Assembly (NCBI GenBank): GCA_002163245.1
Contig: MAAL01000084.1
Span: 1-64,000, forward strand
DNA: 64,000 nucleotides
Source of the DNA: Gammaproteobacteria bacterium 42_54_T18
GTDB taxonomy: Bacteria > Pseudomonadota > Gammaproteobacteria > Pseudomonadales > Ketobacteraceae
Reading direction: 5' to 3'
The translations under genes were made by a program, and so were the position numbers. Shown piece by piece: positions 33,454 to 48,443 of the stretch. Every line of letters starts with the position of its first letter. Position 1 is the stretch's first letter. Under the pieces are notes generated by a model. That model was not told where the DNA came from, ran no database searches, and saw nothing but the letters and a program-made list of their open reading frames with translations.

Positions 33454-33774
33454 TTACCAAGATGAAATGAGCGCTTTGATTCTGGTGAGTACATCTTGTG
33501 CATCTAACATGCTTCCTTCTTCAATAATTTCAATCGGAGTACGACCATCAAAGAAATCATTATGATTGGGTAAAGTCATAAATGCATTTTGGTTTTCAGG
33601 GTTATCGACCTCTGTTAATAAATAGGCTTTCGCTTCTCGTTCCCGATGTACAGGCTCTGATTGGTTAGATATTTCTAGTATTTTATGGCATCGATCATTG
33701 TCTATACCCCATGAGGATAGGATTTCAATCGCCTCCGCTAGAATGTCATGCTCTAAGCATTCATCATCTGCCAT
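33454..33774 (-). CDS. orphan DUF2384 (MbcA/ParS/Xre-type) antitoxin-like protein
   Basis: 106 residues from ATG 33774 (a GTG at 33810 would add 12). The C-terminal half (NAFMTLPNHNDFFDGRTPIEIIEEGSMLDAQDVLTRIKALISSW) matches the toxin-binding domain of antitoxins paired with RES-domain NAD-degrading toxins: a small-residue-rich start, DGRTPIE turn and closing amphipathic helix. No RES-like toxin gene is seen on either side, so it is an orphan, or a remnant of a module carried by the adjoining mobile DNA. Confidence 0.6.
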   Translation of the reverse strand: MADDECLEHDILAEAIEILSSWGIDNDRCHKILEISNQSEPVHREREAKAYLLTEVDNPENQNAFMTLPNHNDFFDGRTPIEIIEEGSMLDAQDVLTRIKALISSW

Positions 33775-34048
33775 CGTCGTATCTGATTCCCTAAAAGGTA
33801 AGCTGCGCACAATTCTAACCTAAAACAATCCTAATCGTTTTAACTACAATGCGGAATGTAAGGAAGTTGAAATCTTGCTGATATAGTCGTCAATCCGAAT
33901 TCTTTATCGTAACCAAACAAACAGTGTCAAAGGTTACGCGAACAATATACCTAGAAAGCTAGTGAATCTCCATTTGACAATAACACTAAAGCGAGAGAGT
34001 AGTGTTTCTAGATCAGAAACAGGAAACACCTATGGTATAAGGGAGGAT

Positions 34049-34228
34049 TCAAAATAAATCAAAACCTTTTCCATTCTTTTTTCTGTGCAGGTCAACACCT
34101 ACAAAAATTGAATTTTTGCGTGCGATATCTATTGGAAGGGCTTTTCCATTACGGATCAGTTCATCATCCGCTTCACGCTGTGCCTTCTTTTGCTTTTTAT
34201 GTTTTTCGATCAAATCGTTATAGTCCAT
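34049..34228 (-). CDS. small hypothetical protein
   Basis: 59 residues starting MDYNDLIEKHKKQKKAQREA and ending in KGFDLF. The N-terminal half is a lysine-rich helix and the second half includes NGKALPIDIARKNSIFVGVDL. I do not recognise a family. It has a plausible start and composition, no overlap with a larger gene, and lies between the antitoxin-like gene and the proposed Tn3 end. Confidence 0.35.
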   Translation of the reverse strand: MDYNDLIEKHKKQKKAQREADDELIRNGKALPIDIARKNSIFVGVDLHRKKNGKGFDLF

Positions 34229-34319
34229 AATTCCACTTTAGCACTTCATTTATTACAAGCCAAAGCAGCGATTTGTTGGAATAAACCCTATTTAACATAA
34301 TATATATTATGCGCATATA

Positions 34320-34357
34320 GGGGTGAGCGACGATCTAGAGGGTTGATTTCCAACAAG
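34320..34357 (+). repeat. candidate 38-bp terminal inverted repeat of a Tn3-family transposon
   Basis: Begins GGGGTGAGCGACGATC and ends CAACAAG at the 38th base; Tn3-family ends are about 38 bp, start GGGG and end TAAG or a close variant. It lies 100 bp beyond the stop of tnpA, where Tn3 elements usually have this end, and faces the correct way. I could not find a matching second end, so the call depends on position and consensus only. Confidence 0.4.
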
Positions 34358-34457
34358 AACTACCTAACCTATTGAAATACAGGCATTTATGAATCCATAT
34401 TTTCAATAGGATAGGGCAAAAAGTCATCCCTGACGAATCTACACCTAAATTTATCTC

Positions 34458-37400
34458 TTAATTATCGGTATCTTCCCAATCAACCATGACTATTGACATC
34501 ATTTGCTTGATCGTGGATTTAAATGACAATGGTTGATCGTGATCAAAATCGAATATTCCCATCATATTTATGTGCTTCCATGAGATTACTGAACCCTTGC
34601 TAATCATTTCAGATACAGCACGCCGCTCATCATCAGAACTAAGTTCATTGTAATAATCAGATAGGAAAAGATAGTTCCACAAAATAATTGCATTTTGTAA
34701 AATGGTTTTACAGGTCATTACCCGCTGCATTTCGGTGTCAGTACCTACGTGAAGATGACCAGAGCGCCCATAAAAAACAGCGCGACCTAGCTTCTGTCCA
34801 AGTTCCACTCGATTTAACTGTTTGGTTATTGACCTTCTAAGCTCGTCGTCATCTATATAATTCAAAATAAACTTAGATTTTATTAATCGGCCAAACTCTT
34901 TAAGCGCAGCATAGAGAGGGCTATCTGCTGCGCTGGCCGATAACATTTTAAACATTAGTGAGGCAGAACAATAATTGAGTTTAATTGTGGCCATCAATCT
35001 AAGTATATCGTCCCAATTATCTAGAATGAGCTTTTTATTAATTGCCGAGTTAGGAGCAATTGGATTCTTAGTATTTCGTCGTAAACTTTTAGCTTCATAG
35101 CCATAAATGGTCTGTTTATTCAACTTCGCAATTCTCGGGGCAAAAGAAACATCCAAAAAATGAAGGCCTGCGAAAATTGCTTCGGTATATCCATGGGTAT
35201 CTGTACTATGTTTGTGTTCACTGTCATCTGTGTTATCTAGGTATTCAAGATTAGATTCATGAAAAGGGGATGACTTCGATTTAGATAAACCATCCATCAT
35301 GTACGGGGCTTCTCTATCAGATGAAGTCATTACGTTCACGTGAAAAAATGACTGTTTATCGTCTAGAAAACTATTTACGGTTACACCTTGTTCCTTTCCA
35401 TAGTATTTGTATGAATAATTTGCTAACAGGGAGTTTACGGCAACTACGACTTTTTTCCCGTCACTACTTGTATGCATCATACTTCCTTGATCATTATAAA
35501 TTGTTGGCAATGGAAGTTCTTGAATAAATTCAACGATACATTGATTCGCCTTTTTCAGGGACTCCTTTGTCAACCACAGTTTTTCGGTGTCTCGCATTTG
35601 CTTTTCCAGGATACCGCGAGATGCCCTCGCTAGATCTGTGTGGCCTAGATTGGTACCGAGACTCATGAGCGTAGCGAAAATGAGTTTGTTTTCAACGGAT
35701 TTCTTAGAGTTTTTGTTGCTGTGATGTCTGAACGATTCGCTAAAATTAGTATAACTGTCAATTTCTGATAAAAGTTCATAGAGAAGTACCGGTTTAGAGT
35801 CACTCAGCAGCTCCGGTATGTATTTTGTCGTATCAAATTTTGGTTCATAATCACTAAGCTTCCAAGCTCCACTTTCATCAACCTTAAGATATTCATTTTC
35901 ATCAGCGAGATATCTTTTATTGACTTGCATATAGGTGTCTGTAAGTGATTTACCCATCTTGCTTACTACTGATTTACCATTGGCATATTTTGTCAGACCT
36001 GCGGCCTTAATAAATTCATTTTTTCTCATCCCCCATTGTTCATCTGAAATCATATAAGTATGACTTGCTTTGTACCGGTAGGAATATTTTAGACACAACC
36101 GTTTTTTACGTATGGCTTTTTCAATCGCTGTAAACAGCTTGACTTTATATTTGGTAACTAGGGGGAAATCACTTTCTGAAAATACAACCTTTTCATCCTT
36201 TTTAGTCATAAATTCGGAGGGCGCATCATTTGTCATGCTTGTATCTTCATCATTAAAAAATTTAATCGCTGAAACAATATCGGGACAGGAGTTTTTCTCG
36301 TCAAAAGTTAATATCTTAATAATGGGAGAAAATGAGCGCTGTAAGCTGTTTGATTTTTCAAATAGAAATTGATAGAAATTAATACTTAGGTCATAGTTTT
36401 TTAGACTTGTTTCCAACCTTCCTATGTGACCGATAAGGTCTGGTTCTTCTGATTCGAAATATGACTCTGCAAGGTGCAGTACTTTTTCGTTTTTTTCGGC
36501 TAGATTGATATCAGGGTCTCTTGATAAATCAAAAATCAATTTCAATATTTGAGTAGAGGTTTTTGCCGAATTTACGACTGATTTGTTCGCGGTATAAAGC
36601 TCTTTTTCGTCTTTTTCTTTGAGAGATCGATTATGTTTTTTTGCCTGGTTAACTATCCCCCTGATTGTCTTAATGAATGCATCAACAGCATAATCTTGTC
36701 GAAGATAATATTGATCTTGAACGAAGGCGGCCAGCAGAAGACACTTTTTGTTAATGTCCTTGATCTTTCTGGTTTGGTTTAGCGTAGATTTATGTACTTG
36801 CTCTGAAAGATGTTTTACCGCCTCTGATGTTAAATTTATTTCGTCAAGAAGCGGTTTAATAATAAAAAATACTTCTTTAAAACGCTTTAATATCTCAGCG
36901 TTATAATTAAGTTTTCTCTGCGTCGTAGATTGATTGATTCGTTTAATTTCAGAGAACTGACTGGCAATATCAGGACTATCAATCAACGATATTAAAGCCG
37001 TTTTTTGTTCATCGGTAATATTTGATACAACCCGTTCCCGCATGGTTTCTTCAAATTCGATAAATGCATTGCTGATGACATCCACGAATTCGTTATAACC
37101 GGGAACTTCGGTTTTATTTTTCCAACAATGGTCCAAAAGGGAAAAGAGGATCAATTCACTATCTTTTTGTTTATCGGCTAGAAGAAGAGCATGTTGCTCA
37201 AGCGCTTTTCTATCAGATGGGGTATATGGTTTCCATCCGTATGCTTCTAGAATAATTGCCCGATGATGCGACGCAGTTTTGGGGTTGTATTTCGATATAT
37301 CTATTGAATTCTTTATGCCAAGTGACCGTTCAGCCATGCGTATATGTACGGGTTTAAATTTAGACGAGTTAAAAAAACGCCCCTTCGCTTGGAAGTACGC

Positions 37401-37571
37401 TCTCTGTGTTAGAAAACCGACTTTATTAATGTCTGAGCGCATCTGGTTAGTGAGTTTGCGGGTTTTTACATCTAGGGCAGTAAAGCCGATGCCTTCTTCA
37501 CGAGATAATTTTGGAATATCATCAAAAACACGGCTACGAGCTGCGCTAAGAATTTTCATTTGTGTTGTCAT
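34458..37571 (-). CDS. tnpA: Tn3-family transposase
   Basis: 1037 residues, the normal size for Tn3-family TnpA. N-terminal DUF4158-like DNA-binding region (to about 170: SREEGIGFTALD...) and C-terminal DDE catalytic domain (about 590-1000). Visible catalytic surroundings are VMTSSDREAPYM, the STDTHGYTEAIFAG motif with the second Asp, and the C-terminal ISWKHINMMGIFDF corresponding to the conserved W-x-H-I-N block. The reading frame is intact. No serine resolvase adjoins it; the only recombinase nearby is the decayed tyrosine recombinase 1.2 kb beyond the candidate end. 37572-37862, upstream, has no gene and contains AT-rich promoter-like DNA. Confidence 0.93.
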   Translation of the reverse strand: MTTQMKILSAARSRVFDDIPKLSREEGIGFTALDVKTRKLTNQMRSDINKVGFLTQRAYFQAKGRFFNSSKFKPVHIRMAERSLGIKNSIDISKYNPKTASHHRAIILEAYGWKPYTPSDRKALEQHALLLADKQKDSELILFSLLDHCWKNKTEVPGYNEFVDVISNAFIEFEETMRERVVSNITDEQKTALISLIDSPDIASQFSEIKRINQSTTQRKLNYNAEILKRFKEVFFIIKPLLDEINLTSEAVKHLSEQVHKSTLNQTRKIKDINKKCLLLAAFVQDQYYLRQDYAVDAFIKTIRGIVNQAKKHNRSLKEKDEKELYTANKSVVNSAKTSTQILKLIFDLSRDPDINLAEKNEKVLHLAESYFESEEPDLIGHIGRLETSLKNYDLSINFYQFLFEKSNSLQRSFSPIIKILTFDEKNSCPDIVSAIKFFNDEDTSMTNDAPSEFMTKKDEKVVFSESDFPLVTKYKVKLFTAIEKAIRKKRLCLKYSYRYKASHTYMISDEQWGMRKNEFIKAAGLTKYANGKSVVSKMGKSLTDTYMQVNKRYLADENEYLKVDESGAWKLSDYEPKFDTTKYIPELLSDSKPVLLYELLSEIDSYTNFSESFRHHSNKNSKKSVENKLIFATLMSLGTNLGHTDLARASRGILEKQMRDTEKLWLTKESLKKANQCIVEFIQELPLPTIYNDQGSMMHTSSDGKKVVVAVNSLLANYSYKYYGKEQGVTVNSFLDDKQSFFHVNVMTSSDREAPYMMDGLSKSKSSPFHESNLEYLDNTDDSEHKHSTDTHGYTEAIFAGLHFLDVSFAPRIAKLNKQTIYGYEAKSLRRNTKNPIAPNSAINKKLILDNWDDILRLMATIKLNYCSASLMFKMLSASAADSPLYAALKEFGRLIKSKFILNYIDDDELRRSITKQLNRVELGQKLGRAVFYGRSGHLHVGTDTEMQRVMTCKTILQNAIILWNYLFLSDYYNELSSDDERRAVSEMISKGSVISWKHINMMGIFDFDHDQPLSFKSTIKQMMSIVMVDWEDTDN

Positions 37572-37862
37572 GTTTGACTCCAGTTGTTTGTTGAGCGAAA
37601 ATTCTACACTCAGGCCTTCTGGAGAGGTAAGAAGTAACCGTAATTAGCTACAGTTATAAGAATGGCTGTTGCTATAACCGCAATTCGTATTTTTTGTAGT
37701 GTACACAACAATTTTTGTTCATAAACCAACCGCCCAGCCTATATTTATTCCTACTTAATTAAGTTTGTCGTTACGTGTGCTTAATATATTTTTGTATTTC
37801 AATATTTCCTAAAGATCGTTGTACAATGGAAATATTTATAACAACAAGACAAACAAAACTGC

Positions 37863-38681
37863 ATGGATCCTACCTCTGAGCTGTACGAATCTTTACAGAA
37901 AGCATTTGATCACTTTAACCGCAGCCTATTTCAAGGCAAGTTGCCCAATGTTATTTTCACGGTTCAGCGAAAAAAAGGAGTAATGGGGTACTTCGCCCCC
38001 GACCGATGGGGGAACCTTGGAGGTAAGCGATGCCATGAGATCGCAATCAACCCTTCCTATATCGCAAACTCTCGGTTAATCGAGGTCATGCAAACACTTG
38101 TTCATGAGATGGTTCACAGTTGGCAGTTTTGCTTTGGGTCACCAGGGAGAGACTATTACCACAATAAGGAATGGGCTCATAAAATGATCAAGATTGGGCT
38201 TATGCCCTCTACTACAGGTGAACCTGGAGGAGCAATTACAGGGCAACAGATGGGGGATTACATAGTCGAGGGAGGACGGTTTTTAGTTGCTTTTAACGAC
38301 TTAAAGGATATTGAAAAATTCCAACTATCTTGGATTGATCGCCGTGCTCTTCCGAGGCTGTTCGAACCGATTGTTGCCAGCCTTGAAGAGAATGGGAAAG
38401 GAAGCACGGGTTACTCTTTGCAGGATTCCAAAGATATAGTCGCCGGCAACCCCAAATTAGCTGAGCCAGAAGGAGGTCCTTTCCCTACCCATTTCATTGA
38501 ACCTACGGATTTCAGTTATTCTGAAATTATGCCTGATACGTTTATTGTAGATGAAGCTCCACCACGTAAAACACGTTATCGATACATATGTTATGGCTGT
38601 AACTCAAAGGTGTACGGTAGGCCGCGCCTGAACATTAGATGTGATGACTGCAACCAAGTATTTGAATGTGAGAAGGTATAA
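37863..38681 (+). CDS. SprT-like zinc metallopeptidase-fold protein
   Basis: 272 residues. SprT-like domain (about 8-115) with active-site HEMVHSW at 81-87 and a downstream His (YYHNKEWAHKM) as third ligand. A C-terminal zinc ribbon follows (CYGCNSKVYGRP ... CDDCNQVFEC, near 245-270). Eukaryotic SprT proteins (Spartan) cut DNA-protein crosslinks; bacterial ones are widespread on plasmids and mobile elements with no settled role. It opens a small island with a regulator, a winged-helix-like protein and a helicase. The region just before ATG 37863 is AT-rich. Confidence 0.85.
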   Translation: MDPTSELYESLQKAFDHFNRSLFQGKLPNVIFTVQRKKGVMGYFAPDRWGNLGGKRCHEIAINPSYIANSRLIEVMQTLVHEMVHSWQFCFGSPGRDYYHNKEWAHKMIKIGLMPSTTGEPGGAITGQQMGDYIVEGGRFLVAFNDLKDIEKFQLSWIDRRALPRLFEPIVASLEENGKGSTGYSLQDSKDIVAGNPKLAEPEGGPFPTHFIEPTDFSYSEIMPDTFIVDEAPPRKTRYRYICYGCNSKVYGRPRLNIRCDDCNQVFECEKV

Positions 38682-38728
38682 GACAATTCCAGTTATTTGA
38701 CAGGATATAACCACGATAAGCGGTTTAC

Positions 38729-38968
38729 TTAACGTGCGCCCAATGCGTTTATATCCATGACGTGAGGTAAGAGCTTACAAGGCGAACAACGCAACGCAGA
38801 TGACAACATGTAGACTTTCTCGAGAGAGATATTTACTTCTCCACGCTCAATGCGGCCAACATAGCTACGATCGATCCCAGACTGAAGGGCAAGATCATCT
38901 TGTGATATTCCCCGTAGTTCTCGTGTTTCTCTAAGCTTTATCCCGAACTCAGAAGCTAAATCCTGCAT
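38729..38968 (-). CDS. Xre-type helix-turn-helix regulator
   Basis: 79 residues consisting almost only of the Xre/Cro HTH (LRETRELRGISQDDLALQSGIDRSYVGRIERGEVNISLEKVYMLSSAL). It is similar to short regulators of restriction-modification and defence islands. It is divergent from the winged-helix/helicase pair and convergent with the SprT gene, so it probably represses the 150-bp promoter region shared with the helicase operon. Confidence 0.88.
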   Translation of the reverse strand: MQDLASEFGIKLRETRELRGISQDDLALQSGIDRSYVGRIERGEVNISLEKVYMLSSALRCSPCKLLPHVMDINALGAR

Positions 38969-39122
38969 GCCAACAGCCCTTTTTTTAAAAGGTGAACTAT
39001 CGGTAGTTGCGGATTATTTAACCACGGACTATAATCCGCGTTTTGTAACGGTAGTGATTGTTATTTCACATTTCGTTTTCTGAAAACCTCCCCTGATACT
39101 ATTTAAACTACTTAGCGTGAAA

Positions 39123-39671
39123 ATGATGTCTACCGCACGAATACAACTTAATCCTGAGTTACACGAGATCCTAACTAACACCAATTTTGATGACTTTACA
39201 GTTTTACAATTAAGAGATAAGTATCAAAAGTTGACGAATAACCGAATTCCGGATGCATCTGATGCGAGAAGGTATGTGTACGCCCAATTAAAGAGGCTTG
39301 TGGAAAAGGGGCTTTTGGTAAAAGAAAAAAGGGCAGGGCAGAGTAAGCATTCGTATCGAAAAACAAACCGCTTCTGTACGTCAGTGCTCTATCCTAAAGG
39401 ACAGCTTCCCTCTGACCACTCCCAAATAACAAGAAATGAATCCTCATGTTCTGACGATGCCTCTACATTTCTATATTCAAAACTAAAGCGATATAAACTT
39501 GAGCTATTGACCGCAATTGGGGAATCTGACGAGTATGAATCACTATATACTGAGCTACCGTCAATGGGGGATGAACTTAGAGCAAGGTATCGCCAATCCA
39601 AGGATTATTCATCAAAAATGCTTGGAAAGGTAAAGGCTATAGAATCTCTTATAGAGCAACTGCCTTCGTGA
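39123..39671 (+). CDS. protein of unknown function with N-terminal winged-helix-like domain
   Basis: 182 residues from ATG 39123 (a GTG at 39117 and an ATG at 39126 are alternatives). Residues about 20-75 (FTVLQLRDKYQKLTNN ... ARRYVYAQLKRLVEKGLLVKEKRAGQ) read as a winged helix; residues 120-180 form a predicted helical pair (YSKLKRYKLELLTAIGES, SKMLGKVKAIESLIEQL). I do not recognise a family. Its stop overlaps the helicase start (GTGA), so the two are coupled, which suggests a DNA-recognition partner for the helicase. Confidence 0.8.
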   Translation: MMSTARIQLNPELHEILTNTNFDDFTVLQLRDKYQKLTNNRIPDASDARRYVYAQLKRLVEKGLLVKEKRAGQSKHSYRKTNRFCTSVLYPKGQLPSDHSQITRNESSCSDDASTFLYSKLKRYKLELLTAIGESDEYESLYTELPSMGDELRARYRQSKDYSSKMLGKVKAIESLIEQLPS

Positions 39672-41092
39672 AAAACACCTTCGTGTTAAGAAAATGGCAA
39701 AAACAATGCGTCCAACAAGTTTTGAGAAAATACCGCCAGGGTAAAAGACATTTTTTGTGTCTTGCCACGCCAGGTGCCGGCAAAACACTGATGGCAGCGG
39801 AAGTCGCCAAACAGTTACTGGATCGAAAAAACATTGAATTCGTTTTGTGTTTTTCACCATCCAAAATAGTTGCGAGAGATTTCCAAATAACGCTAGAAAA
39901 GCATCTAAGGAATCGTCTCGATGGAGCCTTGGGTTCAATCGGTAGCTCATACACCTACCAGGGAATGCAATCCATCCCCCCTGAAATTTGGAAACTGCTG
40001 GAGTCGTTCAATGTGCTAGTGATTTTTGATGAAATCCATCATTGTTCAGGTTCAAAAGAAGAGGGCGCTAATGTTTGGGGGCAAACCATATTAAATAGGA
40101 TAAATCAAAAGGCAGCATTTTCCCTGGCACTATCAGGTACTCCATGGCGTTCAGATAATCTCCCAATTGTGTTATCAGAATACTATGATGGACGTATATC
40201 TTGCGACTTTGTGTATGGACTATCCGAGTCCATCAAAGATAATGTCTGTAGGCGTCCGCAGATAATAGCTATTGATAATGACAGAATAATTTACCAACCC
40301 CATGAAGGTGATCGTAAAACCTTCAAATGTTTTTCTGATTTACTTAACGAAACAACTATTCCGTATCAGCGACTCATTGAAACTCGATCTTTTAACGAGC
40401 AAATGCTAAAAGTAGCAGACAAAAAACTTACAGAGATTCGACGTGCGGTACCAAATGCAGGAGGGTTGGTTGTAGCAACATCGGTGTCTCACGCTCAACA
40501 ACTCTACTCTTACATCAAAAATACATTGAAGAAATCTGTCACAGTTGTTAGCTACAGGGATAGTAATGCCACAAGTATCATTCAGGATTTCAAGAATGAC
40601 ACCACTGTCTGGATTGTTTCGGTAGGGATGATCAGTGAAGGAACCAACATACCTAGGTTACAAGTTTGTTGTCATTTGACACGGATTAAAACTGAGCTTC
40701 ACTTTCGACAAATATTAGGGCGTATCATCCGTTCCAACGCCATAGAAAAAACTAACGCCTACTTGTACATACCAGCACATGCAGACCTTGTGGCGTACGC
40801 TACCCGTGTGGCTGAAGATATTCCAGATGTATGTGGAGTATTCCAACAGATTGCAGGGAACGGTATTCCAAATGATGAGTTGCCGGAACTTCATATGGCA
40901 GCATATGAGAGTACGGTAACGTCTCACGATCAATTACTCTTGGGTACACAAGGAAATTCCTTTGATTCACAGGAGTGCAATGAAAAAAGACCAGCCACTG
41001 TGTCGACTTTATTACGCGACTACGACTGTAGTTTGGATGTATCGGGGCGATACAAAAAACAAGTTATAGCGTTTAGCAGCCCTTTGTCTTAA
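39668..41092 (+). CDS. superfamily 2 DEAD/DEAH-type helicase
   Basis: 474 residues from a GTG at 39668. Motif I ATPGAGKT (33-40), motif II DEIHH (121-125), motif III SGTPW (156-160), motif V SEGTNIP (323-329) and motif VI QILGRIIRS (348-356). The arrangement is that of the RecQ/UvrB/type-III-restriction branch (ResIII-like), without a nuclease or other extra domain; the C-terminal 100 residues are not recognised. It is translationally coupled to the winged-helix-like gene. Helicases of this kind are common cores of anti-phage systems and of DNA repair modules on mobile elements, but the exact gene set here does not match one I can name. Confidence 0.9.
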   Translation: MKNTFVLRKWQKQCVQQVLRKYRQGKRHFLCLATPGAGKTLMAAEVAKQLLDRKNIEFVLCFSPSKIVARDFQITLEKHLRNRLDGALGSIGSSYTYQGMQSIPPEIWKLLESFNVLVIFDEIHHCSGSKEEGANVWGQTILNRINQKAAFSLALSGTPWRSDNLPIVLSEYYDGRISCDFVYGLSESIKDNVCRRPQIIAIDNDRIIYQPHEGDRKTFKCFSDLLNETTIPYQRLIETRSFNEQMLKVADKKLTEIRRAVPNAGGLVVATSVSHAQQLYSYIKNTLKKSVTVVSYRDSNATSIIQDFKNDTTVWIVSVGMISEGTNIPRLQVCCHLTRIKTELHFRQILGRIIRSNAIEKTNAYLYIPAHADLVAYATRVAEDIPDVCGVFQQIAGNGIPNDELPELHMAAYESTVTSHDQLLLGTQGNSFDSQECNEKRPATVSTLLRDYDCSLDVSGRYKKQVIAFSSPLS

Positions 41093-41132
41093 AAGTTGGA
41101 GGCATAAACGCAAAGTAATCACGAACTTAAAA

Positions 41133-41345
41133 ATGCCACTTTTAGAAGTTTGGCGGGGTGAATGGTCAGAGTTTTATGCATCCTGGGCGAGAAAGAATAC
41201 GCTGACTTTTGACGTGGCAGACTATTACATTACAGGTTCGTGGTGGGCTGATACCATAGCTACAATTGTGTTTTCAGGGTTGACATTTTTATTGGCGTTT
41301 ATGATAAGGTCTAGGCGGCTAACAAGTAACGGTATTGGGCGATGA
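41133..41345 (+). CDS. small single-span membrane protein, cassette-like
   Basis: 70 residues with a soluble N-terminus (EVWRGEWSEFYASWARKNTLTFDVADYY) and one membrane helix (DTIATIVFSGLTFLLAFMI), ending in a basic tail. I do not recognise a family. The stop lies inside an attC-like site (41317-41373), the usual layout of an integron gene cassette. It could equally be the last gene of the helicase operon, 40 bp before. Confidence 0.55.
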   Translation: MPLLEVWRGEWSEFYASWARKNTLTFDVADYYITGSWWADTIATIVFSGLTFLLAFMIRSRRLTSNGIGR

Positions 41346-41373
41346 AGCCGCGCCCATGCTTTAAGCGTTATTT
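41317..41373 (+). repeat. attC-like recombination site
   Basis: GGCTAAC at 41317-41323 and AAGCGTTATTT at 41363-41373 resemble the R'' and R' sites of attC (TAAC ... GCGTTA). Between them TTGGGCG and CGCCCA form the central stem around ATGAAGC. The outer arms pair only through TAAC/GTTA, so it is degenerate; no integron integrase is in the window. Confidence 0.4.
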
Positions 41374-41479
41374 GCGACATGAAGTTGCATGAATATATGT
41401 TGTATATCTGGATTTAATTGGCAGACGTTTTAATGAAGAAAGAAAGTTATCTTTGAATTAAAACACAATTAATTCTGGT

Positions 41480-42783
41480 AGCGCAACCTGGAGTTCTACC
41501 TCCAGTATCCTACCCACCATGCGAAAAGGATTTGGTATGAAGCGCTGGGAACAATGTACCCTGTTAAGAAGAGCCGTGAGGTGAATCGGAACTGCGAGTG
41601 TCACGCGGTCGGGGGCTAGGATGGAGAAATATGATGAACATAAGTAAAGAATCGTTGACGTTCCGTGAGATTACAGATCAGCCAAAGACACTGACAGGCT
41701 GTAACCAAAAGGTAAGCGATCCCGGTGCAACCTTGATAACGTGGGTTGTACGTAGACACTGAATCGCCGGAATACAGATTCCATCTACGTTTCTCGTTAA
41801 GGTATTTATGCAGAACATGGCAATGTCGTAGAGCCTTCAAGGAGGAAGAAGGTAACCCGTGAGGGAGCTGGAGACTCTGCGTCGATAAGATGGTGGAAAA
41901 AGCGAATGATTTTCTGTAATGGAAAATATACGGGTTCAAAATTTGCCCGACACGAAAGTGGGCAGACGTCCTATCCTGGTGCTTCGTTGCAAGAGAGCTT
42001 GTAGAATGGATTTTATGAAGGAAGGCAAATGACGGCACTTGTTGCTGGTGCACCTTCGAGCGATGCTGAAAAGTGGAACAATATTAATTGGAAAACTGTT
42101 GAAGCACACGTTTATCAACTACAGGTGCGTATTGCAAAATCTATCCGTGAAGATAGGTGGGGTAAAGCGAAAGCTTTACAGCATGTTCTATCGCGGTCAT
42201 TTATGGCGAAATTACTTGCCATAAAAACAGTTGTATCCAATAAAGGGAGCCGAACTGCCGGTATTGATCAGGTATTATAGAAATCACCAGGGCAATATTG
42301 GAAAGCGGCTCACAATTTAAAACCACAAAACTACCGTGCACAACCATTAAGGCGCATTTATATTCCCAAGAAGAACGGTCAGCGTCGTCCATTGGGGATA
42401 CCTACTCTTCATGACAGAGCCATGCAAGCGCTGTTTGCGTTTGGGTTAAAACCTATTGCGGAAACAACGGGAGATAAACACTCCTATGGCTTTCGTGAAA
42501 AGCGTAGTTTGCATGATGCGAGCAAACAGGGTTTCATCATTCTTGCACAGAAAATATTTGCGCAGTGGATTCTTGAAGCGGATATTAAAGCCTGTTTTGA
42601 TCGTATCAGCCATGAATGGTTACTGAAGAACATACCCTTGCCAAAAAGGATATTAGGGCAATGGCTTAAGTCGGGATTCATTGAAGGAGAACACTTTCTC
42701 GAAACGGAAGACGGGACCCCGCAGGGCGGAATTATTTCGCCGATATTATGTAATATGGCCTTGGATGGCCTAGAAGGGTTCCA
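41480..42783 (+). mobile_element. group II intron fragment, truncated by an IS1111-type element (5' limit approximate)
   Basis: About 550 bp of structured non-coding sequence (domains I-IV of a group II intron, with GGTAAGCGATCCCGG and GAAGGTAACCCGTGAGGGAG) precede a maturase reading frame. The 3' part, including domains V and VI, is absent because an IS1111-type element begins at about 42784. The 5' end cannot be placed exactly. 41374-41480 carries nothing recognisable. Confidence 0.7.
42029..42783 (+). pseudogene. group II intron reverse transcriptase/maturase, nonsense codon and 3' truncation
   Basis: The N-terminal RVT_N domain (WKTVEAHVYQLQVRIAKSI) starts at ATG 42029. TAG at 42278 falls where homologues have Trp (GIDQVL*KSPGQYW), a single-base nonsense change. 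The frame continues with RT domains ([57 protein letters not shown]) and is cut at the IS boundary before the YADD active site. It is dead. It belongs to a different intron lineage from the one at 45472-46720. Confidence 0.88.
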
Positions 42784-42897
42784 ATGTAATGAACCATCCC
42801 ACCCTCTAGTTGGTCTAATCAATCTAGCTTGTCCACTCAATTTTACCGACCGACTATTCAAATTGGTCATTTGTATAGTCGGCAGCGAGGTTTAAAA

Positions 42898-43929
42898 ATG
42901 AATATTTTCTTATTAGGTATAGATATTGCTAAGAACGTTTTTCAACTACATGGTGTTAACCAAGCAGGCAAGGCAGTTTTAAAAAAACGAATCAAACGCG
43001 ACAAATTGCCTGATTATGTGGCGAATTTAACGCCTTGTACCATTGTCATGGAATCTTGTGGTGGGGCAAACTATTGGGCAAGGGTTTTCCAAAGAAGTGG
43101 CCATGCCGTAAAATTAATTAGCCCTCAATTTGTGAAGCCTTTCGTCAAGACAAACAAGAATGATGCCAATGACGCAGAAGCAATAATCGAAGCTGCTAGC
43201 AGGCCCTCGATGAATTTTGTTCCGATCAAGCATGTTGAGCAGCAGGACATACAGTGCGTACACCGCATACGAAGTCGTATCGTAAAAAACAGAACAGCAT
43301 TGATCAATGAAATTCGAGGGCTCAATCTTGAGTATGGGGTGACGATTCCTCTAGGTGCATCTAAAGTCAAAAACTTGCTGCTAGACATCATTGCCAATGA
43401 AAGCAATGAATTAACACCGATGACGCGTGTAATGATGCAAGAACTCTACGATGAGCTAGTCGACATTGAAATACGATTGAAAAATCTGGAAAGAAAGATA
43501 AAACATATCTGCAAACAGAATGAAGCCTGCAGTCGAATACTGAAAATTCCGGGTGTTGGCGAGCTAACAGCAACCGCTATTATTGCTGCTGTTTCCAATC
43601 CTGATGAGTTTAAAAACGGTCGCCATATGTCGGCGTGGTTAGGCCTGGTGCCAAGACAGTCCACCAGTGGAGACAAGCAGGTTTTACTGGGCATTAGCAA
43701 GCGGGGTGATAGATACCTTCGTACATTACTTATTCACGGCGCTAGAGCCGCATTGACGCACTATAAAAACACGGATAACGATTACGGTCATTGGCTAATA
43801 AAGAAAAAAGCCACCCTAAGTTTTAACAAGGCTGCTGTAGCGTTAGCGAACAAGAATGCACGTATTATTTGGTCACTACTTAAAACTGGCAAGGAGTTTG
43901 ATTCTAACAGTCAACAGGTCGCTGCTTAA
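42898..43929 (+). CDS. IS1111-group (IS110-family) transposase
   Basis: 343 residues from ATG 42898. N-terminal RuvC-like DEDD domain (IFLLGIDIAKNVFQLHG, first Asp at 10; VMESCGGANYWAR; KTNKNDANDAEAIIEAA) and C-terminal Transposase_20 domain with serine (IPGVGELTATAIIAAVSNP; MSAWLGLVPRQSTSGDKQVLLGISKRGDRYLRTLLIHGARAAL). The length and intact frame suggest an active enzyme. These recombinases are directed by an element-encoded bridge RNA. Confidence 0.93.
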   Translation: MNIFLLGIDIAKNVFQLHGVNQAGKAVLKKRIKRDKLPDYVANLTPCTIVMESCGGANYWARVFQRSGHAVKLISPQFVKPFVKTNKNDANDAEAIIEAASRPSMNFVPIKHVEQQDIQCVHRIRSRIVKNRTALINEIRGLNLEYGVTIPLGASKVKNLLLDIIANESNELTPMTRVMMQELYDELVDIEIRLKNLERKIKHICKQNEACSRILKIPGVGELTATAIIAAVSNPDEFKNGRHMSAWLGLVPRQSTSGDKQVLLGISKRGDRYLRTLLIHGARAALTHYKNTDNDYGHWLIKKKATLSFNKAAVALANKNARIIWSLLKTGKEFDSNSQQVAA

Positions 43930-44181
43930 TACACAATATTAAGTGGTTAATTTCAATACAACGTAACATTCCACAAGTTTGCTAATGTTAATTTCTAATT
44001 GATGAGTAATAGGTCATCCCAACTCTTTTTAAACCTGAGATGCGACGCGGCCCTTTGAGGTCATGGTTCCGATGAGGAAAAAGAGTGCGGATTTACATCA
44101 GGGCACAAGCACATGCTTAGATGCCGAATATACGACTGCAACTTAAACCTATAACATAATCTAGAAATTGGCTTGCAAAAA
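43930..44181 (+). ncRNA. candidate bridge RNA region of the IS1111 element
   Basis: About 250 bp of non-coding DNA lie between the transposase stop and the right sub-terminal repeat, where IS1111-group elements encode their bridge RNA. GAGATGCGACG at 44037-44047 is the exact reverse complement of CGTCGCATCTC at 44197-44207, on the right junction/flank. That is what a guide loop matched to its target would look like. A long-range hairpin is the simpler alternative. Confidence 0.45.
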
Positions 44182-44268
44182 GGGATGGTTCAAATACGTC
44201 GCATCTCGGGGAGCTCAGGCATGGTATGTTAGAATGTTATTTCCAATTCATCCCCAATTGAGCAATAC

Positions 44269-44984
44269 ATGATCTCTTTCAAAGGCCGACACACTCCCAA
44301 ATCAATCATCCTTCAGGTGTCCGCTGGTACTGTGCTTACTCGCTTAGCTATCGAAACATTGAAGAAATGATGGCTGAACGTGGTCTTAAAATTGATCATA
44401 GCACACTGAATCGATGGGTTATTCACTACGCTCCAAAATTGGAAAAAGCCTTTCATAAAAAGAAGAAAAACCCCGGAAATCGCTGGCGAATGGATGAGAC
44501 GTACTTAAAGGTAAAAGGTGTTTGGAAATACTACTACCGCGCCGTTGATAAGCAAGGCAATACCATCGACTTTCTTCTTACATCCAAGCGGGATACCAAG
44601 GCTGCAAAGCGTTTCTTCGATAAAGCCATTGGGCGAAATGGCAAACCAGGCTTAGTGAATATCGATAAAAGCGGTGCTAACAAAGCTGGTATTGGGCTGT
44701 ATAATCGTGATAATAATCGACGTATAAAAATCCGTCAATGTAAGTACTTAAACAACATTATCGAGCAAGATCACCGGCGAGTAAAGCGGATTACTCGATC
44801 GATGTTAGGTTTCAAAAGTTTCCACTCAGCACAAAGTACTTTGGCAGGTATTGAGCTAATAGCGATGATTAATAAAGGCCAGATGAAGAAAAATATGGTG
44901 GGTACTTTGTCGCCTGCAGAGCAATTCTACGCTTTAGCTGGTGTGTCACGACGAAAGATCAAAGATCTTTCTTGCTGTACTTAA
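44269..44984 (+). pseudogene. IS6-family transposase with an N-terminal frameshift
   Basis: ATG 44269 begins MISFKGRHTPKSIILQ, then the frame shifts by one base near 44317 and continues VRWYCAYSLSYRNIEEMMAERGLKIDHSTLNRWV. Next is the DDE domain of IS6/IS26-like enzymes: first Asp in WRMDETYLKVKG, second in VNIDKSGANKAG, Glu in NIIEQDHRRVKR, and SMLGFKSFHSAQSTLAGIE. About 230 residues in all. Without the frameshift it would be normal. No clear IS6 terminal repeats were found around it, unlike the related copy at 51682-52091. Confidence 0.85.
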
Positions 44985-45471
44985 GATGAGGGAAGGCCCC
45001 TCGGTTTCGGTAACCAAATACTGAAATCAAACTACCCTATGCGGCTTTCATTAAGAGTGTTGGTCGTGAGCGATAGGGAAAAGGCAGAATTAAATCTGTT
45101 ATGTAGGTTCTGTGGAGATGAATGCAAATGAACCACCGATAAGGTGTCGATATGTATATATGCTGTCAAAACCAAGAGCCCAGCTTTCTCTTGGGATGAG
45201 CTTTAACGTGATTTGGATACGGGTAAGGTGGCAGCCGGTATGGAGGTGGCATGAACGCAGAACAGGCTTTAGTACGGAACGTGAGAACCTGTCGTTCTGA
45301 TGTTAAGGGAGACATCCAAATGGTTAATACCCATAAGGATTTGAGTACCAATGCAGAGCACAGGGGCGGACCACTGCGTAGTAGTGTTGAAATTTCTGTA
45401 ATGGAAACGGAGCGAAGGCAGTGGCTTGTCCAGTTTAATTTATTCGATCAACCATACGTGGGAGGAATTGA

Positions 45472-46720
45472 ATGAGGGAAACAAAACCCTTTCAAATACC
45501 AAAGCATCTTGTTTATGAAGCCTATAAACGAGTGAAAGCAAACAAAGGTGGCGCCGGAGTCGATGGAAAAAGTCTCAAAGATTTTGAATCGAATCTCAAA
45601 AATAACCTTTATGTGCTTTGGAATCGACTGTCGTCAGGCAGCTACATGCCACCACCGGTTAAGCGAGTCGAAATAGGGAAAGCAGATGGCGGTATTCGCA
45701 AGTTAGGAATACCAACGGTTGCTGATCGAATTGCTCAAATGGTGGTAAAGCTGCAAATAGAACCGGAAATTGATCCACAATTTCACCCAGACTCCTATGG
45801 CTATCGGCCAGGAAAGTCAGCTCATCAAGCGCTGCAAGTAACAAAGCAGCGTTGTTATAAACGAGCATGGGTTTTAGATATGGATATTAAAGGCTTCTTC
45901 GATAATATTGATCATGAGTTGTTGATGAAAGCAGTTCGTCGTCACGTTAAAGAAGGTTGGCATTTACTCTATATCCAGCGGTGGCTAACAGCCCCTATAC
46001 AACATCAAGACGGGTTGCTGGAAGTTCCACAAAAAGGGACGCCACAAGGGGGGAGTAATAAGCCCTCTTTTGGCAAATCTGTTTTTGCATTATGTATTTG
46101 ATGTTTGGATTGGGAAAAACTGGGGGCACATACAATTTGAACGCTATGCGGATGATATTGTGTGTCACTGCTCCACGGAGTACGGCGCGAGAAAATTGAG
46201 AGTGGCTCTTGAGGAGCGCTTTCAATCTTGTGGCTTACAGTTGCACCCTGATAAAACTAAAATAGCGTACTGTAAAGGAGGGTCAAGAAAAGGCGGTTAT
46301 TCTACGGTAACCTTTGACTTTTTGGGGTACACTTTTCAACCACGATGGATACAAACTCGTAAGGGCGTCCAAGGATTATATTTCAGTGCTGCTATTAGTC
46401 AGAAATCGGCGAAAGCGATCAGAGATGAGATAAATTCATGGCCTTGGCAATATTGGTGTCACAAAGAGTTAGTGGATATACGTAATTTCAGTCGAAGCCG
46501 CTTGTCGGGTTGGCTGAACTACTTTAGTTTGTTTGGTAGAAGCTTTATTCGCAATGTACTTTTTCATTTTGACAAGCGATTATCTCGCTGGGCGAAAAAG
46601 AAGTACAAGAAACTCAAGACATTAATGCAGGCAGCTAAGAGGGTTAATTTTGCTAGGATTAATAATCCGCAGGTTTTTCCTCACTGGCAGAAAAAGTCCA
46701 TGGGAAAGGGTTGGACATGA
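45472..46720 (+). pseudogene. group II intron maturase with a single-base frameshift
   Basis: The RT domain begins MRETKPFQIPKHLVYEAYKRV and runs through WVLDMDIKGFFDNIDHELL to KGTPQGG. A run of six G (46048-46053) is one base too long; removing one restores PQGGVISPLLANLFLHYVFD and leads into the second piece with active site RYADDIVCH, the group II maturase domain (FDFLGYTFQPRW) and C-terminus (RSRLSGWLNYFS). No HNH endonuclease domain is seen. A homopolymer sequencing error is possible, but nearby lesions of other genes make true decay reasonable. Confidence 0.87.
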
Positions 46721-47083: not shown

Positions 47084-47134
47084 TGTCGGTAAGTAAAGCC
47101 AATATCCTCTACCCAAAAAAGCGCCCCTGATGGG

Positions 47135-48407
47135 CACTGCTGTCCCATAGTTTAATCATCATATTGAGAGCCTCATTTGAGGCTCTTTCCTTTTGTGTCG
47201 AGGTGGGCCAGGATCGAAGATCTCTTTGAGGCTTTTTCGTTCAAATAAATTCAATTGAAGCACTCTCAACATACGTTGAACAGTCCAACCTTCTTTTGCG
47301 CTATGTCTTGCAAATGCCACCAACAAGTAGGTAATCATCGCTATCCAAATTTGAGTCAGAATAGCGTTTCGAGAACGGCCAACGAAGGCTTTGATTTTTA
47401 AGTTCTGCTTAATGGCTTTAAAGAATAGCTCTACCTGCCATCTATCTTTATAAATTGCCGCGATTGTCTTTGCAGATAGTGAGAAGTTATTCGTTAAAAA
47501 TTCAAAGAACTTACCTGTTTCTTGGTCTCTGAATCCGACCCGGCGTAGCTTTGGTGCGCCTCGTTTAAGTGCATGTGCGCTGCTAAGCTGGATAACCTGA
47601 TCGCTAGTAACGCCATGGGATTTATTGACAGGATTTCGTTCTAATACTCTGTACACTGACTTTGCTCTAACCCTGCTAACAAAGAAAACACCTTTATCTG
47701 TCAGTGACTTAAACCATTCGTAATCAACATAACCTTTATCAAAGGCAACGATGCTTCCTTTAGGAAAATCGAACTTCCGACCTTCCACCATATCGTTTTC
47801 CTGGCCATCACTAATCGCAACAAATTCAGGGATCATGGTGCCATGATTCAAACCAACACTTAACTTTACGTTAGCCGTATCGTGCCGATGGGCAGCCCAT
47901 GGAAAAAGATTTAAAGATAGGTCGATGGCGCTTGCGTCGAGGGAGTACAAGGGATTTTTAAAGCGAAATTTATGATTGGATGGCTGGTTTTTACATCGAT
48001 TTAAGAGCTTGTAAAACAAGTTTTCATAAAGTTCGGCCGGTTGCTGGTCATTAAGTCTGGATAAGGTGGAGCGAGCTATTGGTTTAGCGCCCAGGTGATA
48101 GAGCTTCTGCTGCTGAGCTTCAAGATTCGATTGAATATCTCGCAAGCTCTGACGACCGGAGAGCTGAGACATGCTCATACCGATAAATTGATCCCAGCGG
48201 GTCGCGGATCTTAATTTCTGTCCTGAATGATGCTGTTTGGCCAACCCTTCGAATTCATGTCTAGAAACGGGTTTTAGCAGTTGGTAAAAAGCGGTGTTAT
48301 GATGTGACAAAGCCTGAATCCCTGTTGTTGAAGTGTTTGGTCGCACTTACATTTTAACAGCTTAGATTCAGGCTTTCTTATTTATCCCAAACTATGGGAC
48401 AGCAGTG
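47135..48407 (-). mobile_element. complete IS4-family insertion sequence (1273 bp)
   Basis: Perfect 19-bp terminal inverted repeats CACTGCTGTCCCATAGTTT (47135-47153) and its complement at 48389-48407. They are flanked by the direct 10-bp target duplication CCCTGATGGG (47125-47134 and 48408-48417). The single gene inside is intact, so this looks like a recent insertion. Confidence 0.97.
47159..48346 (-). CDS. IS4-family transposase
   Basis: 395 residues with an N-terminal DUF4372-like region (HNTAFYQLLKPVSRHEFEGLAKQHHSG) and DDE domain: first Asp in YSLDASAIDLSL, second in SIVAFDKGYVDYEWF, and the Y-x2-R-x3-E-x6-K signature as YKDRWQVELFFKAIKQNL. The intact gene fills the element. Homologous to the fragment at the left edge of the window. 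Confidence 0.95.
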   Translation of the reverse strand: MRPNTSTTGIQALSHHNTAFYQLLKPVSRHEFEGLAKQHHSGQKLRSATRWDQFIGMSMSQLSGRQSLRDIQSNLEAQQQKLYHLGAKPIARSTLSRLNDQQPAELYENLFYKLLNRCKNQPSNHKFRFKNPLYSLDASAIDLSLNLFPWAAHRHDTANVKLSVGLNHGTMIPEFVAISDGQENDMVEGRKFDFPKGSIVAFDKGYVDYEWFKSLTDKGVFFVSRVRAKSVYRVLERNPVNKSHGVTSDQVIQLSSAHALKRGAPKLRRVGFRDQETGKFFEFLTNNFSLSAKTIAAIYKDRWQVELFFKAIKQNLKIKAFVGRSRNAILTQIWIAMITYLLVAFARHSAKEGWTVQRMLRVLQLNLFERKSLKEIFDPGPPRHKRKEPQMRLSI

Positions 48408-48443
48408 CCCTGATGGGGCGTTTTTTATTGCAGGAGCAGATTC

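What the first reader, a model, noticed from the sequence alone, without database searches (positions are those of the whole stretch)
37863..41345. Uncharacterised island: SprT-like zinc protease, divergent Xre regulator, coupled winged-helix protein and SF2 helicase, small membrane protein
A compact, intact group sits among decayed mobile DNA. The SprT-like protein has an HEMVH active site and zinc ribbon; an Xre regulator faces a translationally coupled winged-helix/helicase pair; a one-span membrane protein follows. Intact frames, against decay of almost every neighbour, suggest selection. A DNA-protein-crosslink-type protease plus helicase under a phage-type repressor would suit anti-phage defence or element maintenance. 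I cannot match the set to a named system; its function is inference.
Basis: partly seen in the sequence, partly recalled or inferred. Interest (0 to 1): 0.72.

Follow-up and report, generated by a model that had tools for sequence, protein, structure and literature searches.

The report
Mobile controller-regulated DNA helicase cassette
A small set of three genes (a self-regulating switch, a DNA-binding partner and a DNA motor enzyme) travels on many kinds of mobile DNA, mostly in marine bacteria, and probably helps to defend or establish the DNA that carries it; no name or tested function was found for it.

Summary
The genes are real and intact, but not one four-gene island. The core is a three-gene module: divergent Xre regulator, winged-helix protein (PadR-like fold plus coiled coil), RadD/XPB-like SF2 helicase. 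Of 92 related helicases, 89 have the winged-helix gene directly upstream and 88 a divergent Xre. Relatives of all three genes show purifying selection. The window's Xre is closest to the restriction-modification controller C.AhdI. Three Xre classes occupy the slot, each with its own conserved box; the class changes at least 11 times on the helicase tree. The module occurs beside type I R-M genes, recombinases, Tn3 transposases and inside type I-F CRISPR-Tn7 transposons. No PADLOC model or paper seen names it; one paper lists hipB and ssl2 among the most enriched Shewanella CAST genes. The SprT-like protein belongs to the plasmid Mpr family and accompanies the module in 4 of 92 loci, next to a Tn3 transposase. 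The 70-residue ORF has no clear relative. Best reading: a controller-timed helicase cassette without a recognised nuclease, for defence (0.45) or element establishment (0.3). Function untested.

The parts
38729..38968 (-). Xre / R-M controller-like regulator, 79 aa, divergent from the wH-helicase pair
   Evidence: Pfam HTH_3 59 bits; PADLOC Control_protein 8.8e-17; best PDB C.AhdI 9.1e-14
38995..39008 (.). candidate operator AACTATCGGTAGTT
   Evidence: box ACTATC-N3/4-AGT in 16 of 50 class A promoters against 3 of 856 control stretches
39026..39037 (.). candidate operator GGACTATAATCC
   Evidence: GGA[CT]TATAATCC in 23 of 50 class A promoters, 0 of 856 control stretches
39117..39671 (+). winged-helix protein (about 181-184 aa; start GTG 39117 or ATG 39123/39126): PadR-like winged helix plus C-terminal antiparallel coiled coil
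   Evidence: AlphaFold2 pLDDT 89.6, pTM 0.55; Foldseek best PadR 5x11 E 3.1e-4; no Pfam family; 89 of 92 loci
39668..41092 (+). SF2 helicase, 474 aa, RadD/XPB/HsdR-motor-like, no nuclease domain recognised; 4-nt overlap with wH; tail 397-474 low confidence in the model
   Evidence: Pfam ResIII 54.9 bits; NCBIfam RadD 64 bits, below cut-off; model pLDDT 77.4; Foldseek best RadD 3.1e-14
37863..38681 (+). SprT-like zinc metalloprotease of the plasmid Mpr family; neighbour, not core of the module
   Evidence: Pfam SprT-like 50.2 bits; tblastn matches in 2622 plasmid records, best full-length 47.8%; HEMVH and CxxC pairs
34458..37571 (-). Tn3-family TnpA, open frame, 1037 aa; Tn3 TnpA + SprT + module recurs in L016, L021, L070
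   Evidence: Pfam DDE_Tnp_Tn3 8.8e-106
41133..41345 (+). 70-aa ORF with one hydrophobic stretch by eye; no clear relative, possibly not a gene

Best explanation
The core is a mobile three-gene cassette (Xre controller, winged-helix adaptor, SF2 DNA motor without a recognised nuclease) that most likely acts as an accessory immune module of the elements and islands that carry it. SHOWN, mostly on relatives: conserved order and divergence; purifying selection; a small HTH-only controller of R-M type with class-specific boxes in the shared promoter; overlapping or adjoining wH and helicase genes and one wH-helicase fusion frame; helicase motifs; copies beside type I R-M genes and beside transposition or recombination genes. 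INFERRED: the Xre represses, and perhaps first activates, both divergent genes, so that on entry into a cell without Xre the pair is made in a burst and then held low, as with C proteins of R-M systems and the Xre regulators of I-F3 CASTs. The wH protein dimerises through its coiled coil, binds DNA, and brings or loads the helicase. The motor then translocates on invading or replicating foreign DNA and blocks or remodels it, with cutting, if any, left to host or neighbouring nucleases. The SprT-like protease is a separate element-borne gene found with some Tn3 transposases and on many plasmids.
For: Order: wH 89 of 92 and Xre 88 of 92 helicases. dN/dS in the first 40 close pairs listed (pairs share loci, so not independent; the window's own copy has no close relative to test): helicase 0.07-0.43, wH 0.12-0.65, Xre 0-0.27 where finite. 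Xre: C.AhdI for the window, C.Csp231I for a class C copy. Boxes by class 23/50, 13/18, 11/17 against 0/856, 0/284, 0/272 control stretches; class C box CTTAG-N5-CTAAG has the half-sites of the published C.Csp231I site CTAAGN5CTTAG (PMC4321490, passages). 11 class changes on one quick helicase tree. Type I methyltransferase models match 9 of 120 near neighbours against 1 of 120 distant genes. CBASS, TIR or DncV-like cyclase genes beside three plasmid copies. Fusion frame in L015. Fold: PadR-like wH, RadD-like motor.
Against: No activity, phage or plasmid phenotype exists. Within the same loci the pull towards type I R-M is modest (17.4% against a mean of 10.5%, highest of 200 draws 16.9%). The distant-gene set also holds single hits to defence models such as ThsA, OloB and PDC candidates, so the loci are defence-rich at large. 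No effector nuclease is seen. Some plasmids carry Xre and wH without the helicase, so the wH seems to have a role without the motor. The module touches transposition genes as well as defence genes, which suits a helper for the element equally.
Confidence: 0.45

Rival explanations
1. Establishment or transposition helper: the pair is made in a zygotic burst when the element enters a new cell, and the helicase clears or remodels DNA (replication gaps, integration intermediates, restriction complexes) so that the element can settle.
For: In 5 of 6 loci with Tn7-like tns genes the module lies 0-59 bp from them, next to tnsC; in L020 it lies directly upstream of tniQ-cas. The Xre stands where CASTs keep their regulator. 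A CAST review reports that Xre proteins RtaC/RtbC control I-F3 transposition and that both branches show zygotic induction (PMC11406308 section 22). Genes of the seeded integration families lie within 3 kb in 28 of 92 loci. The motor is closest to the repair helicase RadD.
Against: Two type I-F CASTs on plasmids have an Xre in the slot but no wH or helicase annotated there, so it is not needed for every CAST. The excess of integration genes within the same loci is modest (30.4% against mean 18.9%, highest 26.1%), and of the five integration families taken singly only one exceeds its highest random draw. Modules also lie beside type I R-M genes.
Confidence: 0.3
2. Regulatory island switch: the wH is mainly a transcription factor of neighbouring defence genes, like VspR, and the helicase is an added partner.
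For: Xre with wH but no helicase beside it in Enterobacteriaceae plasmids. PadR-like fold. One plasmid record labels the wH of L009 'VspR'. VspR is reported as a negative regulator of CBASS (PMC10653837 passages).
Against: The wH accompanies the helicase in nearly all helicase-centred loci, mostly overlaps or adjoins it, and is fused to it once. The VspR label is the depositor's and was not tested here; no wH was found in the CBASS-side ORFs of L005 and L013.
Confidence: 0.15
3. One reading: SprT protease and helicase form one DNA-protein-crosslink machine under a phage-type repressor.
For: Order TnpA-SprT-Xre-wH-helicase in the window and L021; module, then SprT, then TnpA in L016 and L070; SprT-Xre-wH in L082.
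Against: SprT in only 4 of 92 loci; 2622 plasmid records hold SprT relatives but 61 the helicase; eight SprT relatives elsewhere have other neighbours.
Confidence: 0.05
4. Decaying passenger DNA without function.
For: Broken copies exist: a stop in the L004 helicase, a split wH in C127 of the same genome, a broken helicase frame in L082.
Against: Low dN/dS among relatives of all three genes, conserved motifs and boxes.
Confidence: 0.05

Closest known systems
R-M controller (C) proteins C.AhdI, C.Csp231I
   Same: Small HTH-only proteins; palindromic boxes in the shared promoter; C.Csp231I-type half-sites in class C
   Different: Sit opposite a wH-helicase pair, not a restriction enzyme; no binding shown
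RtaC/RtbC Xre regulators of type I-F3 CASTs
   Same: The same slot beside tnsC; a class C Xre is C.Csp231I-like, as PMC12452197 reports for Shewanella I-F3 CASTs (passage)
   Different: Most module copies seen lie outside CASTs; the CAST regulators are reported to control transposition (PMC11406308)
RadD DNA repair helicase (also XPB, HsdR and SauUSI motors)
   Same: SF2 motor fold and motifs
   Different: Shorter, far under the RadD cut-off, nearly always with a wH partner in the loci examined, patchy and mobile
PadR / VanR / AphA regulators; VspR of Vibrio (label only)
   Same: Winged helix followed by a long helical part
   Different: No Pfam PadR membership; coupled to a helicase
Plasmid Mpr/MpR zinc metallopeptidase and ArdC (for SprT)
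   Same: Mpr: 42-48% identity over nearly the whole length in the 30 rows listed; ArdC: SprT-type protease domain (PMC7213743, passages)
   Different: ArdC has an ssDNA-binding domain; antirestriction by the window's protein is untested
hipB and ssl2 cargo of Shewanella CASTs (PMC12452197)
   Same: Probably the same Xre and helicase, listed among the most enriched genes
   Different: Not described there as one module in section 21 (read); no winged-helix gene mentioned in that section

Membership tests
R-M controller (C) protein, for the Xre | Sequence relatedness to known C proteins, HTH only, under about 100 aa | tested here: met
   C.AhdI 9.1e-14 over residues 7-66 of 79; PADLOC Control_protein 8.8e-17
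R-M controller (C) protein, for the Xre | Paired C-boxes (canonical GACT/AGTC type) in its own promoter | tested here: inconclusive
   AACTATCGGTAGTT and GGACTATAATCC are conserved and similar but not the consensus GACTTATAGTC
R-M controller (C) protein, for the Xre | Linked to a restriction-modification pair | tested here: not met
   Linked to wH-helicase; no R-M gene among the 28 window proteins scanned with Pfam (not every ORF was scanned)
RadD (NCBIfam NF053632) | Equivalog score of 720 bits | tested here: not met
   64.1 bits, motor part only
PadR family (PF03551) | Gathering score 27 bits | tested here: not met
   16 bits; PadR not among the 10 families matched by any of 63 members at E 0.01; fold match only
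Named anti-phage systems in PADLOC 2.0.0 | Protein-level match to a system's own models (system rules were not run) | tested here: not met
   wH and SprT: none; helicase: partial motor matches, best PbeA 55 bits; Xre: generic control-protein and HTH models
SprT-like / plasmid Mpr | SprT-like domain, HExxH, CxxC pairs, full-length match to Mpr | tested here: met
SPRTN-type DNA-protein-crosslink protease | DNA-activated proteolysis of crosslinked protein | not testable with these tools
   no assay; no PDB sequence match at E 0.1
Tn3-family transposon carrying the set | TnpA plus a pair of terminal inverted repeats around the set | tested here: not met
   TnpA present; no repeat pair found
Type I-F3 CAST | tnsABC, tniQ, cas genes | tested here: not met
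   none among the 28 window proteins scanned with Pfam; present around relatives L004 and L010 by annotation and L020 and L065 by BLAST cluster

The most novel reading that the evidence does not exclude
The cassette is a general, plug-in establishment system of mobile elements: interchangeable R-M-type controllers, swapped together with their operators, give a zygotic burst of a winged-helix-loaded helicase that overcomes restriction or completes integration in the new cell. Type I-F3b CAST regulators (RtbC) may have been recruited from, or exchanged with, this cassette.
Probability: 0.22. Interest if true: 0.8.

Novelty: new variant of a known kind. Interest (0 to 1): 0.58.

Why it matters
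Its regulator and operator appear to be exchanged as a unit, a clean natural case of controller swapping. If the pair is defensive, it adds a helicase system without a recognised nuclease. If it helps elements settle, it would link R-M controllers, CAST regulation and element establishment.

Tried and rejected
Searched for Tn3 terminal repeats around the set: a GGGG-starting 38-base stretch at 34320-34357 downstream of TnpA has no partner at 3 mismatches (first 23 bases) or by an ungapped scan of the window; a transposon boundary is not claimed. Near DNA matches of 33800-43900 in plasmids: none. Viral contigs: 58 relatives at 22-34% identity; their neighbourhoods were not analysed. wH in the PDB by sequence: best E 0.034, not significant. 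VIA-align of the wH model: the rows are mostly coiled-coil matches (Z 8.5-11.2) and were not used for a family claim. Chromosomal empty site: in the genus relative with the closest copies the two flanking genes lie on different contigs; no conclusion. wH in the CBASS-side ORFs of L005 and L013: not found. A joint alignment for folding the natural fusion misaligned the wH rows and was not used. The idea that SprT is a Tn3 gene: of 8 other SprT loci (6.6-19.5 kb) one (L179) has a TnpA N-terminal piece and none a whole TnpA. The box patterns were noticed on some of the loci later counted, so the counts test chance occurrence, not an independent prediction; a further class B pattern that I wrote with the wrong spacing scored 0 everywhere. 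The Xre of L036 and L043 are weak matches (E about 1e-4) and may be outside the three classes. PADLOC counts lean on broad models: a group II intron reverse transcriptase of the near set matches 14 of them. Promoter and terminator scan of 37560-41500: fewer sites than in shuffles, uninformative. Sets cut before counts: neighbours of 150 aa or more, 120 of 156 (two nearest per locus) and 120 of 172 distant ones; class B 18 of 20 and class C 17 of 18 loci; 90 of 92 helicases in the tree. L082 is not in the 92. The 107 helicase frames include some genes twice (overlapping loci), and 10 of them lack the exact G-x-GKT pattern.
Full report
What is there. Window 37863-41345 holds a SprT-like ORF, a divergent Xre gene, an overlapping winged-helix/helicase pair and a 70-aa ORF. 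To the left is an open Tn3-family TnpA; to the right lie pieces of reverse-transcriptase genes, IS240-type genes, an open IS110 transposase and an open DDE_Tnp_1 transposase. Further out on both sides are catabolic genes (acyl-CoA dehydrogenases, enoyl-CoA hydratases). Only 28 of the window's proteins were scanned with Pfam.

The three-gene module. 79 of these, 10 plasmid loci, two further copies in the window's own genome and the window make 92 helicases at E 1e-60 or better. Of these, 89 have the wH gene on the same strand upstream (gap limits -150 to 400 bases, so that split frames are counted) and 88 have a divergent gene that matches the Xre profile (E 1e-3, up to 800 bases away). The three without a separate wH are L015 (fused, see below), L028 (a Tn3 element with its own inverted repeats lies directly upstream of the helicase) and L079. 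The sample is biased: it was found through the helicase and holds the nearest relatives. The module is patchy: a profile search for the wH found it in 1 of 274 genomes drawn from the class, the window's own; 5 of 15 genomes of the same family, the own one included, hold the helicase. The own genome holds two more copies, one of them with its wH split in two frames.

The proteins. The helicase has the SF2 motif set; of 107 long helicase frames (some genes counted twice) 97 keep G-x-GKT and 107 keep DExH, [ST]GTPWR and GRxxR. It scores far below the RadD cut-off (64 of 720 bits), but its model (pLDDT 77.4, pTM 0.73; residues 397-474 unreliable) is closest to RadD, XPB, SauUSI and HsdR motors. 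No nuclease or other domain was recognised. The wH protein matches no Pfam family. Its model (pLDDT 89.6, pTM 0.55) is a winged helix plus an antiparallel coiled coil, and Foldseek ranks PadR first (E 3.1e-4). The low TM-scores (about 0.3) mean that the two halves do not superpose together, so this is a fold hint and not a family assignment. In L015 (a metagenome-assembled genome) wH and helicase form one 668-aa frame; because the genes normally overlap or nearly touch, an assembly indel could make this.

The switch. The 88 Xre proteins were put into classes by nearest representative: A (50 loci, window included), B (20) and C (18). The window's Xre is nearest to C.AhdI in the PDB, a class C one to an uncharacterised protein and then C.Csp231I, and a class B one to an uncharacterised Xre protein. 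Each class has its own box between Xre and wH: 23 of 50, 13 of 18 and 11 of 17 promoters, against 0 of 856, 0 of 284 and 0 of 272 control stretches; none of these three boxes occurred with another class. The class C box CTTAG-N5-CTAAG has the half-sites of the published C.Csp231I recognition sequence CTAAGN5CTTAG (PMC4321490, passages read). On a quick helicase tree of 90 rows the Xre class changes at least 11 times (not tested against shuffled labels; the window sits on a long branch). L036 and L048 share 82% of the helicase but have very different Xre (the Xre of L036 is a weak match and may be a fourth class). So the regulator and its box seem to be swapped as a unit. That C proteins time the expression of R-M genes, also after entry into a new cell, is taken from the listing of PMC8053105 and PMC3115060. 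A review states that both I-F3 CAST branches, with Xre regulators RtaC and RtbC, show a zygotic burst of transposition (PMC11406308 section 22). Applying this to the module is inference.

Selection. In the first 40 close pairs listed, dN/dS is 0.07-0.43 for the helicase, 0.12-0.65 for the wH and 0-0.27 for the Xre where finite. These pairs share loci and do not include the window, which has no close relative.

Where it lives. The module is found inside type I-F CRISPR Tn7-like transposons between tnsC and tniQ-cas (L004, L010), directly upstream of tniQ in L020, and beside tnsC in L065, L078 and L091 (no cas genes were seen in L078 and L091). It is found behind tyrosine-recombinase operons, beside CBASS or TIR genes on IncHI2A plasmids, beside a DncV-like cyclase, and beside type I R-M genes. 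Within 3 kb there are genes of the seeded integration families in 28 of 92 loci and type I R-M genes in 16 of 92. Random positions in the same loci give a mean of 18.9% (highest 26.1%) and 10.5% (highest 16.9%), so the excess over 30.4% and 17.4% is modest; of the five integration families taken singly only one exceeds its highest random draw. Near neighbours match type I methyltransferase models in 9 of 120 cases, distant genes in 1 of 120, though the distant set has single hits to other defence models. Two CASTs on plasmids have an Xre in the same slot but no wH or helicase annotated there. In Enterobacteriaceae plasmids a wH relative pairs with a class C-like Xre without a helicase beside it (profile scores 46.6 and 64.9 bits against a highest shuffled score of 7.9; 64 records hold this wH; two were looked at).

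The SprT-like protein. It belongs to the plasmid family annotated Mpr/MpR or SprT-like: 2622 of 72,556 plasmid records match, best full-length identity 47.8%, and PHROG 6361 covers residues 5-268. Of 369 genomes of the class, 9 hold a relative, the own one included; the settings of the other eight looked mixed by eye, no family scan was run on them. It is near the module in the window, L016, L021 and L070 (4 of 92) and in L082, and in the first four it lies between a Tn3 TnpA and the module. The three other TnpAs are 24-29% identical to that of the window, so the association is old or repeated. ArdC, a plasmid protein with a SprT-type protease domain, protects plasmids from HsdRMS, although its protease activity is not needed for that (PMC7213743, passages); whether the Mpr protein acts alike is unknown.

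Known or not. No PADLOC 2.0.0 model is specific to it. Paper searches for combinations of winged helix, PadR, Xre, helicase, COG1061, CAST cargo and defence islands showed no description of the module among the papers listed; most lists were capped, and subscription papers are not held. PMC12452197 (passages and section 21 read) names hipB and ssl2 among the most enriched genes of Shewanella CASTs, probably these genes; that hipB and ssl2 are COG names for an Xre and an SF2 helicase is recalled. PMC8649781 on Tn7 cargo mentions only a UvrD-type helicase in the one passage found. PMC12255303 (passages and section 25) describes another repressor, RptR, beside type I R-M genes; it is an analogue, not this family.

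Verdict. The novel object is the Xre-wH-helicase module. Defence accessory is my first choice, element establishment a close second; no experiment decides yet.

Noticed in passing
L219 (E. coli plasmid) 5344-6333 and L220 4369-5321: A wH relative and a class C-like Xre without a helicase beside them, next to integrase operons; type I R-M genes lie beside it in L219. A helicase-less version of the module.
   Followed up: partly
L015 4666-6672: wH-helicase fusion frame of 668 aa in a metagenome-assembled genome; could be real or an assembly indel.
   Followed up: partly
L160 (own genome C75) and L159 (own genome C127): Two further module copies of another subfamily in the same genome; in C127 the wH is split over two frames.
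   Followed up: partly
L016 12760-16848, L021 4647-8440, L070 11925-15734, window 34458-38681: Mpr/SprT gene directly beside a Tn3 TnpA in different orientations, with very diverged TnpAs.
   Followed up: partly
L004 8001-9383: The helicase of the Vibrio penaeicida CAST copy has an internal stop while its wH and Xre are open.
   Followed up: no
window 34320-34357: GGGG-starting 38-base stretch downstream of TnpA looks like one Tn3 end, but no partner was found.
   Followed up: yes
window 47116-48426: DDE_Tnp_1/DUF4372 transposase in an open frame between 38-bp inverted repeats (87% alike): an insertion sequence that looks whole.
   Followed up: no
window 33454-33810: Weak Xre/MbcA/ParS antitoxin-like ORF (minus strand, E 1.1e-4, below the family cut-off) left of the TnpA.
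   Followed up: no
window 42392-46720: Pieces of reverse-transcriptase/maturase genes and a short IS240-type frame around an open IS110 transposase.
   Followed up: no
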